Below are positions 22,336 to 41,831 of a stretch of 64,000 nt of DNA, in pieces. Both the position numbers and the translations under genes were made by a program. The notes under the pieces were generated by a model. It was not told the DNA's origin and searched no databases. It saw only the letters and a program-made list of their open reading frames with translations. The stretch's first letter is position 1. Every line of letters starts with the position of its first letter. Origin of the DNA: Catellatospora paridis (GTDB lineage: Bacteria > Actinomycetota > Actinomycetes > Mycobacteriales > Micromonosporaceae). The stretch lies in NCBI RefSeq assembly GCF_009720365.1, contig NZ_ML769315.1, positions 527,621 through 591,620 on the forward strand, read 5' to 3'.

Positions 22336-22397
22336 CGTTGATCATGAACTTATGGGCAGGTTCGACGGCGTGTCGCTCCCCTAACTTCATGATCGAT
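22336..22397 (+). repeat. Hairpin repeat family A, copy 1
   Basis: It reads GTTGATCATGAACTTATGG, then TTCGACGGCGTGTCG, then CTAACTTCATGATC. The arms are inverted and the CGAC...GTCG core is off-centre. Forward orientation. It lies just after the SAM-adenosyltransferase stop. Confidence 0.85.
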
Positions 22398-22448
22398 CCG
22401 CAGGGCGCCCACTACGGGCGGTGAGTGGCATGCGCCGATGATCTAGGC

Positions 22449-22485
22449 GTTGACAAGATAGGTGGGTCGTGGAAATCTTGTCGAC
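22449..22485 (+). promoter_or_regulatory. Inverted repeat with TTGACA, upstream of SCO6745-like gene
   Basis: GTTGACAAGAT (22449-22459) and ATCTTGTCGAC (22475-22485) are inverted with one mismatch across a 15-nt spacer. The left arm includes TTGACA, a plausible -35. It lies 45 bp before the start codon and could be an operator for the gene itself. Confidence 0.45.
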
Positions 22486-22529
22486 GTCAAGATGCATTCT
22501 GGGTGTCACGAGATGAGGGAGGGACGGCG

Positions 22530-23405
22530 ATGTCCGAGATGGTGCCCCCGGCGCTGGTGCGTCAGATGTGGCAGGTGCTGGAACCGGTGCACGCGGCGAT
22601 CTACTTCGCGCCCCAGGCCGACGAGGAGGCCGCGGCGCTGGGTTACGACACCGGGAGCCGCTGGTCGAGCTACTTCGCGTGGCGGTCCGCGCCGCTCGGC
22701 GCGGCCGGTCCTGAGCTGGTCGCCGCGACCTACTACAGCTTCAGCCCCGCCATGATCCGCACCTACGTCCCCGCGATCTGGGAGACGGCCACGCCGGACA
22801 AGGTGCTGGCCGCACGGCTCCGGGCCGTCGACCGCACCCTGCGTGCACTGCTCCCGGACTTCGTCGACAGCCCGGAACTGGCCGAGGCCGCCGTGCTCGC
22901 CCGCCGCGCCGCGCAGGCCGCCGTCACCGCGGGCCGCCCGCTGGCCGCCGCCAACGCCGACCTGCCGTGGCCGGACGAGCCGCACGTGGCGCTCTGGCAC
23001 GCCGCGTCGGTGCTGCGCGAGCACCGCGGCGACGGGCACCTCGCGGCGCTGCTCACGGCCGGGCTGGACCCGTGCGAGGCACTGGTGTCGTTCGCGGCGG
23101 TGGGCGCGGCGCCGGTCGAGGTCTTCGCCAGCCGGGGCTGGACGGTCGGCGAGTGGCGGGCCGCGCAGCAGCGACTGACCGCACGGGGCTGGCTCGACGC
23201 GGAAGGACAGGCCACCGACGCGGGACAGGCCGGGCGGGCCGAGGTCGAGCGCATCACTGATGAACTGGCCGCCGGTCCGTGGCGGGCCCTGGGCCCGGCG
23301 GGTGCCGGCAGGCTCGCTCAGCTGGTCGGGCCGGCCGCGGTCACCCTGGCCCGCTCGGGGATCTTCCCCCGGCAGAGCACGCTGGGCCTCGGCGCACGGC
23401 GCTGA
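22530..23405 (+). CDS. SCO6745-like (SalK-type) protein
   Basis: A 291-residue soluble protein resembling the actinobacterial SCO6745 family. Recognisable pieces are MWQVLEPVHAAIYFAPQA at the start, YFAWRSAPLG, YYSFSPAMI, and a C-terminal winged-helix-like part WRAAQQRLTARGWLD with TDAGQAGRAEVE. The family is probably a MarR-like fold without a proven DNA target. GAGGGAGGG lies about 7 nt before the ATG. An inverted repeat upstream suggests local control. Its function is unknown. An 11-bp hairpin closes the gene. Confidence 0.75.
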   Translation: MSEMVPPALVRQMWQVLEPVHAAIYFAPQADEEAAALGYDTGSRWSSYFAWRSAPLGAAGPELVAATYYSFSPAMIRTYVPAIWETATPDKVLAARLRAVDRTLRALLPDFVDSPELAEAAVLARRAAQAAVTAGRPLAAANADLPWPDEPHVALWHAASVLREHRGDGHLAALLTAGLDPCEALVSFAAVGAAPVEVFASRGWTVGEWRAAQQRLTARGWLDAEGQATDAGQAGRAEVERITDELAAGPWRALGPAGAGRLAQLVGPAAVTLARSGIFPRQSTLGLGARR

Positions 23406-23423
23406 CGCTCCCCGAAGTGAGGC

Positions 23424-23448
23424 AGCGGGCGGCCGGTGGCCGCCCGCT
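23424..23448. terminator. Bidirectional terminator between SCO6745-like gene and clgR
   Basis: A perfect 11-bp stem (AGCGGGCGGCC / GGCCGCCCGCT) with a 3-nt loop lies between convergent genes, 19 nt after the plus-strand stop. Confidence 0.75.
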
Positions 23449-23489
23449 CAGGAGCACATGGAGCTGGGAGCACCGCCGCAACGGGCTCC

Positions 23490-23933
23490 TCAGACGCCGA
23501 CGACCTCGCGGCCGCGCGCGTTGCCGGTGTTGCCCGGACGCATGTTGCGGGTCGTCCGCAGCGTGGTGCGCAGCGGGTTGTCCCGGCGGACCGTGACCGA
23601 GACCTGGCCGTCGGTGGCCACCTCGGTCCGCGGCCGGTGCGTGATCTCAGCCACCTGCTTGTCACCGCGCGGCAGCGGCGTGAGCACGCCCTCGACCTGC
23701 TCGGCGACGGCCATGGTGTCGCTGACCTCGCGCAGGACCTCGGACAGGCGCGCGCCCAGCGCATCGCAGATCGAGGTCAGCAGCTCGCTGGACGCCTCCT
23801 TCTGCCCCCGCTCGATCTCGGACAGGTAGCCGAGACTCACGTTGGCAGCCGTGGAGACCTCACGCAGGGTGCGGTGCTGGCCCTGCCGGCGGGCACGGAG
23901 GGCATCACCGATCACTCGACGCAGAAGCACCAT
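23490..23933 (-). CDS. clgR: ClgR, transcriptional regulator of Clp proteolysis
   Basis: A 147-residue XRE-type regulator. The HTH is TLREVSTAANVSLGYLSEIE followed by RGQKEASSELL, the ClgR hallmark. ClgR activates clpP, clpC and membrane-stress genes in actinobacteria, and is itself a proteolysis substrate. The C-terminus ends REVVGV; a hydrophobic tail is the usual degradation signal in this family. AGGGGGTG lies a few nt before the ATG at 23933. It follows cinA and pgsA, the same order as in mycobacteria (Rv2744c-Rv2746c region). Confidence 0.93.
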   Translation of the reverse strand: MVLLRRVIGDALRARRQGQHRTLREVSTAANVSLGYLSEIERGQKEASSELLTSICDALGARLSEVLREVSDTMAVAEQVEGVLTPLPRGDKQVAEITHRPRTEVATDGQVSVTVRRDNPLRTTLRTTRNMRPGNTGNARGREVVGV

Positions 23934-24048
23934 GTTCGCACCCCCTGAACTGTTCCCCGTCACGACGCTGTCGGCTGATATGCCGTCAGCCGCCGGTTGT
24001 CACCGACGGCTGAGAAGAACCGTACTCTCTTCATGCCAGTTCGACATC

Positions 24049-24065
24049 CCGCCCCGCCGGGGCGG
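24049..24065 (-). terminator. Hairpin after cinA
   Basis: CCGCCCC / GGGGCGG form a 7-bp perfect stem with a 3-nt loop. It lies about 90 bp downstream of cinA and upstream of clgR on the minus strand. Confidence 0.45.
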
Positions 24066-40711: not shown

Positions 40712-40735
40712 CCGCCACCCGGCGCCACGGCGCCG

Positions 40736-40796
40736 CGTTGATCATGAACTTATGGCACGGCTCGACGGTGTGTCCCAGCCACAACTTCATGATCAC
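40736..40796 (+). repeat. Hairpin repeat family A, copy 4
   Basis: GTTGATCATGAACTTATGG, core CTCGACGGTGTGTC, then CCACAACTTCATGATCA. Forward orientation. It lies 25 bp after the GNAT stop and before the end of dapB. Confidence 0.85.
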
Positions 40797-40822
40797 CACC
40801 CGACCCGACCCGCGCGCATGAT

Positions 40823-40901
40823 CGCGACGATCTTGCGCGAACTGTTGCCGATACGCCCGGATTGAGCGTGTCATACCCACAGTTCAAGCAAGATCGTCGC
40901 G
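40823..40901 (-). terminator. Long hairpin after dapB
   Basis: CGCGACGATCTTGC...GAACTGT (40823-40845) and its near-perfect complement (40879-40901) form a 23-bp stem with two mismatches. It ends 28 bp after the dapB stop. It is unlike families A-D. Confidence 0.7.
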
Positions 40902-40928
40902 GGCGGGCGGGTGGGTGGGTGAGGTGGG

Positions 40929-41684
40929 TTACAGGAGGGGGGCCAGGCCTAGGGTCAGGCCGGGGCGTTTGACGACCTCGCGGATGGCGAGGAGGACGCC
41001 GGGCATGAAGGAGGCGCGGTCGAAGGAGTCGTGGCGGATCGTCAGGGTCTCGCCGGTGGCGCCGAAGAGGACTTCCTGGTGGGCGACCAGGCCTGCGGCG
41101 CGCACGCTGTGGATGCGTACGCCCCCGACCTCGGTGCCGCGGGCACCGGCCATCTCGTCCGTGGTCGCGTCGGGCATCGCGGGCTTGCCGGCGGCCTTGC
41201 GGGCCTGCTCGATGAGCCGGGCGGTATGCAGGGCGGTGCCGCTGGGCGCGTCGACCTTCTTCGGATGGTGCTGCTCGATGATCTCCACCGAGTCGAAGTA
41301 GCGGGCCGCCCGCTCGGCGAACTCCATCATCAGCACCGCGCCGATGCCGAAGTTGGGTGCGATCACCACGCCGACCTCGGGCTTGGCCGCGAGCCAGCCT
41401 CTGACCTGCTCCAGCCGCGCGTCGGTGAAGCCGCTGGTGCCGACGACCACATTGATCCCCTGGTCGATGCACCACTGCAGGTTGTCCATGACCACGTCCG
41501 GCGTGGTGAAGTCCACCACGACCTGGGCGGAGGCGTCGGAGGCGTTGAACAGCCAGTCACCCTGGTCGACCATCGCCACGAGGTCGAGGTCCCCGGCCTG
41601 GTCGACGGCCCGGCACACCTCGATGCCCATGCGGCCGCGGGCACCCAGCACGCCGACCCGCAGCGGCTCTACTTCATCAGTCAC
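40929..41684 (-). CDS. dapB: 4-hydroxy-tetrahydrodipicolinate reductase
   Basis: A 251-residue enzyme acting after DapA in lysine/diaminopimelate synthesis. The nucleotide-binding motif VGVLGARGRMG is at the start. APNFGIGAVLMM and the active-site EQHHPKKVDAPSGTAL are complete. The GTG at 41684 has TAGGTT exactly 6 nt upstream, the same hexamer and spacing as dapA. The downstream hairpin at 40823 ends the gene. Confidence 0.95.
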   Translation of the reverse strand: MTDEVEPLRVGVLGARGRMGIEVCRAVDQAGDLDLVAMVDQGDWLFNASDASAQVVVDFTTPDVVMDNLQWCIDQGINVVVGTSGFTDARLEQVRGWLAAKPEVGVVIAPNFGIGAVLMMEFAERAARYFDSVEIIEQHHPKKVDAPSGTALHTARLIEQARKAAGKPAMPDATTDEMAGARGTEVGGVRIHSVRAAGLVAHQEVLFGATGETLTIRHDSFDRASFMPGVLLAIREVVKRPGLTLGLAPLL

Positions 41685-41690
41685 GCGCCC

Positions 41691-41696
41691 AACCTA
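41691..41696 (-). promoter_or_regulatory. -10 element of dapB (leaderless type)
   Basis: TAGGTT ends 6 nt before the GTG at 41684. Confidence 0.55.
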
Positions 41697-41770
41697 GCCG
41701 ATCAGACCGCCCTCAGCGCGACGACCACGCACTTTTGGGAACACACCGCGCAGCCTGCCCCGACCGCCTA

Positions 41771-41831
41771 AACGATCATGAAGTTGTGGCCACGACACGC
41801 CGTCGAACCGTGCCATAAGTTCATGATCAAC
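41771..41831 (-). repeat. Hairpin repeat family A, copy 5
   Basis: In reverse complement it reads GTTGATCATGAACTTATGG then TTCGACGGCGTGTCG. It is inverted relative to copies 1, 3 and 4, and lies 12 bp after the M16 peptidase stop. Confidence 0.85.

What the first reader, a model, noticed from the sequence alone, without database searches (positions are those of the whole stretch)
22336..41831. Oriented intergenic hairpin family A: five copies with a conserved asymmetric core
Copies at 22336, 28067, 30652, 40736 and 41771 share arms GTTGATCATGAACTTATGG / CATAAGTTCATGATCAAC and an off-centre core near CGACGGYGTGTCG. Copies 2 and 5 are inverted, so the element has a direction. A simple terminator does not need a conserved asymmetric core; this suggests a mobilised element (REP/MITE-like) or a protein target. 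All copies sit within about 50 bp of a gene 3' end. No transposase is in the window.
Basis: seen in the sequence. Interest (0 to 1): 0.75.

Follow-up and report, generated by a model that had tools for sequence, protein, structure and literature searches.

The report
Fixed-length hairpins at actinobacterial gene ends
The five copies belong to a large family of DNA hairpins, nearly always 61 bases long and with a conserved core that gives them a direction, which sit mostly just after genes in Catellatospora and, in altered form, in related bacteria; they resemble REP repeats but lack the REP enzyme and end tags, and are probably transcript-end signals.

Summary
Observation confirmed. Four window copies are exact 61-mers; in copy 3, 67 nt replace 4 nt of the loop (its orthologue in a 95%-identical species is an intact 61-mer). 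The genome holds at least 85 copies; 83 of 84 strong ones are 61 nt. All ten other genus genomes searched carry it (genus inferred: Catellatospora). Related 61/62-nt families occur in other families of the order: arms GTTGATCATGNRSTT and a decamer CGGCGTGTCG in the loop. At 82 of 102 independent Catellatospora sites the 5' arm follows a same-strand gene end (median 18 nt after the stop), and all 18 independent close pairs face inward. In 11 orthologous pairs positions 3-18 never changed. Flanks switch from C-rich to G-rich. REP membership fails: no end tag, no Y1 transposase match in 5 of 11 genus genomes. Best reading: a REP-like dispersed family serving as a two-way transcript-end module. 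Function is inferred; the orientation rule is not seen in other genera, and whole elements are barely more conserved than other intergenic DNA.

The parts
22337..22397 (+). copy 1, 61 nt, 25 nt after the stop of a SAM hydroxide adenosyltransferase gene (+), before an SCO6745-family gene (+)
28069..28129 (-). copy 2, 61 nt, between a small + gene (stop 28045) and ftsK (-; stop codon at 28134); 5' arm 4 nt from the ftsK stop
30653..30776 (+). copy 3, 124 nt: 5' arm and core intact, 67 nt with an inner hairpin (30711-30738) in place of 4 loop nt; between the ftsK start and the RNase J stop (30806); the one window copy that faces against the orientation rule
   Evidence: orthologue is a 61-mer; inner hairpin occurs once in the genome at up to 3 mismatches
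40737..40797 (+). copy 4, 61 nt, between a GNAT-family gene (+, stop 40711) and dapB (-, stop codon at 40929), convergent
41771..41831 (-). copy 5, 61 nt, between the dapB start and the stop of an M16 peptidase gene (-, 41843), tandem, same direction as that gene

Best explanation
A dispersed family of 61-nt hairpins that works as a transcript 3'-end module. Shown: near-fixed length; strong predicted hairpin on either strand; place mostly just after stop codons, with more convergent and fewer divergent gaps than the genome at large; a C-rich/G-poor stretch before the 5' arm at every site tested and its mirror after the 3' arm at most; unchanged 5' arm in one species pair. Inferred: transcripts that run into it meet a C-rich, Rho-loading-like tract and then the hairpin, which fixes the mature 3' end (by termination or by stopping 3' exonucleases) for both converging genes; the loop decamer and the 5' arm are read by a factor not yet identified. 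Copies spread by a route that, in at least five of eleven genomes, does not leave a recognisable REP-type (RAYT) transposase.
For: Length: 83 of 84 strong copies span 61 nt, one 60 (counted by hand). Position: 102 independent Catellatospora sites; 82 with a same-strand gene end upstream, median 18 nt from the stop; 42 convergent and 5 divergent, against 43 and 68 of 252 gaps of 60 nt or more in 441 kb of the genome; 9 sites use the element's own TGA as stop codon; in genome G055 2 of 28 elements form both stop codons of a convergent pair. Flanks: 60 nt upstream C>G in 102 of 102, downstream G>C in 88 of 102, against C>G at 83 of 133 gene ends in 441 kb. Orientation: tandem 40 to 15, p=0.001; 18 of 18 independent close pairs inward-facing. 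Selection: in 11 orthologous pairs 0 changes in 176 cells at positions 3-18, intergenic divergence 7.7%. Structure: two-sided changes at 9 pairs vs 3.5 in shuffles, none of 500 as high, in G055. Distribution: 55 of 249 genomes, 16 of 69 genera drawn from the order. Precedent: stem-loops without U tract at transcript ends of Streptomyces clavuligerus (passages of PMC8269248).
Against: No RNA data. The element as a whole is hardly more conserved than other aligned intergenic DNA (93.6% against 92.3% identity); the contrast is within the element, and positions 3-18 were chosen after seeing the data. 20 of 102 sites have no same-strand gene end upstream. The orientation rule is not seen in other genera: tandem sites 8 with vs 7 against in G047, 2 vs 6 in G055, 6 vs 4 in a mixed g4 sample, 5 vs 2 in one g4 genome. 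In convergent gaps without a second copy the 5' arm is nearer its stop in only 19 of 27. A C-to-G switch reads the same on both strands and cannot set direction; other hairpin families have such flanks too. No excess covariation in Catellatospora or G047; the sets were picked with arms or a structure model, and related sequences can exceed shuffles without structure. The 3' arm often breaks pairs (C13/C49 in 14 of 16 copies). Only 18 of 102 have three or more T in the 8 nt after the stem. Many loci were fetched with an exact 5' arm, or 5' arm plus core, which inflates 5'-arm conservation; rest on a scan with a permissive score.
Confidence: 0.5

Rival explanations
1. A selfish REP-like element moved by an unrecognised or lost enzyme; it collects after genes because insertion elsewhere is harmful.
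For: Gain or loss: a +/- pair in C. vulcania where G000 has only the - copy, and a copy whose TGA ends a gene that, by my reading of the alignment, runs on in the orthologue; the copy at C4:277442 absent in G003; the dapB-upstream gap filled in 8 and without the element in 3 of 11 genomes; other fixed-length hairpin families present or absent in the same or similar gaps. Whole-element identity is near the intergenic level.
Against: No Y1 transposase match in 5 of 11 genus genomes; no clear target duplication; 11 of 14 copies in the compared stretch shared with G003; copy-specific differences kept while positions 3-18 do not change.
Confidence: 0.27
2. A double-stranded DNA target, for a nucleoid protein or DNA gyrase, that relieves supercoils at gene ends, as proposed for BIMEs of E. 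coli (recalled, from no call).
For: Conserved sequence with an asymmetric core, and many convergent gaps; arms do not covary in two of three tested sets.
Against: Stem pairs covary in G055 and, weakly, in one g4 genome whose copies were picked without using the 5' half (one of 24 pairs above all 300 shuffles).
Confidence: 0.15
3. Plain intrinsic terminators that look alike by common origin.
For: Strong predicted hairpins after stop codons; median RNA energy -25.9 kcal/mol over 102 copies.
Against: 84 of 102 have fewer than three T in the 8 nt after the stem; fixed length, loop decamer and invariant outer arm are not needed by a terminator.
Confidence: 0.06

Closest known systems
GTAG- and CGTC-tagged REPs (PMC3733652 and PMC2817692, passages seen)
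   Same: dispersed extragenic palindromes, inverted dimers, tens to hundreds of copies; CGTC repeats too lack a linked transposase
   Different: 61 nt rather than 20-40; both ends paired, no unpaired GTAG or CGTC tag; conserved motif in the loop; the word actinobacteria does not occur in either paper's main text
REPIN / BIME (PMC3116915, passages seen)
   Same: some copies form inverted doublets
   Different: most copies are single; no RAYT found; the doublets seen always have 5' arms outward
HS-U-lack transcript ends of Streptomyces clavuligerus (PMC8269248, passages seen)
   Same: stem-loop without U tract at gene ends of a GC-rich actinobacterium
   Different: not described, in the passages seen, as one sequence family; here one family with fixed length and loop motif; transcript ends not measured here
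MITEs
   Same: short, inverted ends, intergenic
   Different: no clear target duplication, no parent element with the same ends in the 441 kb checked

Membership tests
REP with RAYT | REP-associated Y1 tyrosine transposase in the genome, flanked by the repeats | tested here: not met
   Own genome: matches at two loci, both partial, beside genes that I read as TnpB from their translations. 5 of 11 genus genomes (G002, G005, G007, G009, G010) and G055 have no PF01797 match at E<=1e-3 (13 of 61 genomes match). A transposase too diverged for this Pfam model is not excluded.
REP with RAYT | unpaired GTAG (or CGTC) tag at one end | tested here: not met
   The ends are GTTG and, mostly, CAAC, CGAC or CACC; GTTG takes part in the stem.
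REP with RAYT | palindrome with many extragenic copies, some as inverted doublets | tested here: met
   (190 of 191 copies intergenic by my gene caller)
MITE | target-site duplication | tested here: not met
   direct repeats at the ends of 198 copies: 4 nt 1 vs 2.6 expected; 3 nt 7 vs 3.5 (sd 1.7), a slight excess; none of 5 nt or more
MITE | longer parent element with the same ends | tested here: inconclusive
   in 441 kb of G000 and 400 kb of G003 the unpaired arm hits are chance-like (2 mismatches) or copy 5 and its orthologue; the rest of the genomes was not checked this way
Intrinsic terminator | hairpin followed by U run | tested here: not met
   18 of 102 with three or more T in 8 nt
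Transcript 3'-end hairpin (Rho or processing) | transcript ends map to it | not testable with these tools
   needs RNA 3'-end sequencing
DNA uptake sequence | single arms also scattered outside hairpins | tested here: not met
   441 kb and 400 kb only
Rfam families | match to a curated RNA family | tested here: not met
   two Rfam matches in the window, neither on a copy; copy 5 only chance-level matches, E 2.8 and 4.1

The most novel reading that the evidence does not exclude
An ancient two-way transcript-end signal of Actinomycetes: a 61-nt hairpin with a paired GATCATG base and a loop decamer CGGCGTGTCG, read by a dedicated, still unknown factor, that has been copied to gene ends in many lineages without a REP transposase.
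Probability: 0.3. Interest if true: 0.82.

Novelty: new variant of a known kind. Interest (0 to 1): 0.6.

Why it matters
How transcription ends in GC-rich actinobacteria is poorly charted. A repeat family with near-fixed length, a conserved loop motif and an inward-facing rule at gene ends gives a concrete, testable set of sites and a bait for a factor. It also suggests that REP-like spread need not come with a recognisable REP-type transposase.

Tried and rejected
Tried and rejected: (1) RAYT link: no support. (2) C-rich to G-rich flanks as the cause of direction: rejected, because such a switch reads the same on both strands. (3) A general orientation rule: seen in Catellatospora, not in the other genera sampled. 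(4) Base pairing of the flanks beyond the 61 nt: own flanks pair no better than shuffled partners (-22.67 vs -22.63), though short exact extensions are enriched (4 nt inverted: 18 of 198 vs 6.1 expected). (5) Copy 3 insert as another repeat: its inner hairpin is single copy at up to 3 mismatches. (6) Phage or plasmid origin: no match in either collection at E<=0.01. (7) Literature: searches listed no paper that I could tell describes this element; I saw listings, and passages of PMC8269248, PMC2817692, PMC3116915, PMC3733652 and PMC3409199, no paper in full. One search (sequence words) found 37 papers, 15 listed; the one opened (PMC3409199) holds the word in a primer; the other 36 were not opened. 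Subscription papers are mostly not in the library.

Corrections: one search read part of the loci in the wrong direction and is superseded. One search listed one place (L024) as lacking the element by error; one search shows that it has it. My notebook says all 104 loci are Catellatospora; one search shows that one (L190) is Allorhizocola rhizosphaerae. Rows dropped before counts: copies near locus ends or without a called gene on both sides; L075, L077-L089 and L190 as not Catellatospora; loci whose flanking genes are far or missing or whose core direction is ambiguous (23 of 30, 17 of 22 and 18 of 28 kept; 27 of 30 kept for context).
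Full report
WHAT IS THERE. The window belongs to a genome of 8.97 Mb in 35 contigs. The five reported copies exist. Consensus of 102 site representatives: GTTGATCATGAACTTATGGcacGG.TCGaCGGcGTGTCg..gcCacaacttCaTGATC.ac. A covariance model (R1) gives 149 rows in the genome at E<=0.01; removing the reverse-strand shadows by hand leaves 84 copies of 53 bits or more, plus copy 3 at 33.6 bits and a few weaker rows; 83 of the 84 span 61 nt, one 60. Only the best 150 candidates were scored, so this is a lower bound. Distribution is uneven: contigs C1 (1.10 Mb) and C2 hold one copy each, C3 (0.83 Mb) 20, C4 (0.62 Mb) 18 with copy 3.

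COPY 3. G003, a relative in the same genus, aligns over 378 kb in blocks longer than 1 kb at 95.1% identity. There the orthologue of copy 3 is a normal 61-mer; in our genome 67 nt with an inner hairpin stand in place of 4 nt of the loop. That inner hairpin occurs once in the genome.

PLACE AND DIRECTION. From the Catellatospora loci held I took 198 distinct copies with a called gene on both sides (my own codon-based gene caller); merging orthologues gives 102 independent sites. Read 5' to 3', a same-strand gene ends upstream at 82 (42 convergent, 40 tandem) and not at 20 (15 tandem-opposed, 5 divergent). For comparison, of 252 gaps of 60 nt or more in 441 kb of the genome 43 are convergent and 68 divergent. 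At the 82 sites the 5' arm begins a median 18 nt after the stop (quartiles 12 and 29), and at 9 the element's own TGA is the stop codon. Tandem sites: 40 with the gene, 15 against (p=0.001). In convergent gaps the 5' arm is nearer its gene's stop than the 3' arm is to the other in 33 of 41, but in only 19 of 27 without a second copy. Neighbouring copies less than 600 nt apart: 32 pairs, 18 independent, all with 5' arms outward. Of the window copies, 1, 2, 4 and 5 follow the rule and 3 does not.

FLANKS. The 60 nt before the 5' arm hold more C than G at 102 of 102 sites, the 60 nt after the 3' arm more G than C at 88 of 102. Gene ends in 441 kb with a gap of 120 nt or more show C>G in 83 of 133 (30 of 38 convergent, 53 of 95 tandem; element sites included). 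Because this switch reads the same on both strands it does not set direction, but it gives each of two converging transcripts a C-rich, G-poor tract before the hairpin. Other hairpin families have like flanks. There is no clear target duplication (4 nt: 1 vs 2.6 expected; 3 nt: 7 vs 3.5) and no pairing of flanks beyond composition.

CONSERVATION. A permissive scan finds 16 elements in 441 kb (copy 3 not among them), 14 inside the stretch compared with G003: 11 have an orthologous element, one (277442) is absent, two lie in a stretch that does not align. In the 11 pairs positions 3-18 show 0 changes in 176 cells; changes cluster at 20-25, 33, 39-43 and 50, and copy-specific 3' arms are kept. 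Aligned intergenic columns differ by 7.7%, genes by 4.35%; the whole element by 6.4%, so it is only slightly more conserved than its surroundings and the contrast lies inside it. By simple arithmetic 0 of 176 at 7.7% has a chance near 1e-6, with the region chosen after seeing the data. Against their own consensus the 16 copies have 1 mismatch at positions 4-19, 14 at 26-38 and 21 at 43-58. The wider profile (48 site clusters) agrees, but many of its loci were fetched by an exact 5' arm.

GAIN AND LOSS. C. vulcania (L202) has a +/- pair where our genome has only the - copy; in another locus (L114 against L187) the element's TGA ends a gene that, by my reading, runs on for several codons in the orthologue. 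The gap upstream of dapB holds the element in 8 of 11 genomes and not in the 3 with the least similar dapB; the 3' gap holds this family, other hairpin families, or both. Two other families in the same 441 kb have fixed length between the arms searched (61 nt in 9 of 9; 67 nt in 3 of 3).

BEYOND THE GENUS. All 10 other genus genomes match (31 to 89 rows each, 89 being the scoring cap and shadows included). In a draw from the order, 55 of 249 genomes and 16 of 69 genera match at E<=1e-4. G055, another family: 27 copies of 61 nt aligned, palindromic centre GACACGCCGGCGTGTC; 9 pairs with two-sided change against 3.5 in shuffles, none of 500 as high. G047, a third family: 30 copies of 62 nt, loop half GACACGCCG or CGGCGTGTC and the other half free; no excess covariation. 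These sets were found with the structure model. In genus g4 (unnamed; from size and number I take it for Micromonospora, an inference) a pattern that used only core plus 3' arm found 33 hits in one genome and 0 in the reversed control; of the 30 held, 29 are 61 nt and one 62, all 30 have the 5' arm and C-rich then G-rich flanks, 18 of 27 with clear context are convergent, and pairing exceeds every shuffle at one of 24 positions. In a draw from the class (197 genomes), 12 genomes outside the order give 1-6 weaker matches each; of 7 such loci read, 4 hold the decamer or its complement exactly, 2 with one mismatch, 1 not. So the family may be older than the order, with less certainty. The gene-orientation rule is not repeated outside Catellatospora: tandem 8 vs 7, 2 vs 6, 6 vs 4, 5 vs 2.

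RIVALS AND MEMBERSHIP. The paper that sorts REPs into GTAG and CGTC kinds (PMC3733652, passages) reports CGTC repeats without a transposase; ours has neither tag. The copies have no Rfam match and the 61-mer no match in the phage or plasmid collections.

MECHANISM. Shown: anatomy, position, flanks, position-specific conservation in one species pair, dispersal. Inferred: that RNA polymerase or exonucleases stop at it, that the C-rich tract helps load Rho, that a factor reads the loop. The S. clavuligerus transcript-end map (PMC8269248, passages) makes stem-loops without U tract at gene ends plausible in this phylum. The best reading is a REP-like dispersed element in service as a two-way transcript-end module; the selfish reading and a DNA-protein reading remain open.

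Noticed in passing
window 11332-11396, 14939-14999, 53975-54039: Second hairpin family (arms near ATAGACGYTGGCCTATCYGGATGA); in 441 kb nine copies all have the same arm-to-arm length; hairpins of this kind are present in G003 and absent in G000 at C4:266577 and C4:456217.
   Followed up: partly
window 4281-4359, 10308-10392: Third hairpin family with GAAGATCGCTGTC arms, 67 nt between the arms searched in 3 of 3 copies of the G000 and 4 of 4 of the G003 stretch.
   Followed up: partly
window 40805-40919 and 51275-51355: Further long inverted repeats with GATC-containing arms, the first directly beside copy 4.
   Followed up: no
window 38286-38339: Repeat AGGAAGGGCACCT; a similar hairpin is present in G003 and absent in G000 at C4:499522.
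   Followed up: no
window 27705-27772: Guanidine-III riboswitch above its Rfam threshold, before the small gene that ends at 28045, next to copy 2.
   Followed up: no
window 45812-45869: Actino-pnp RNA upstream of the pnp gene 43427-45757.
   Followed up: no
G000:C15:42896-43135 and G000:C20:79939-80132 (L034, L035): Partial Y1 transposase genes next to genes that read like TnpB; the one on C20 is split over two frames.
   Followed up: partly
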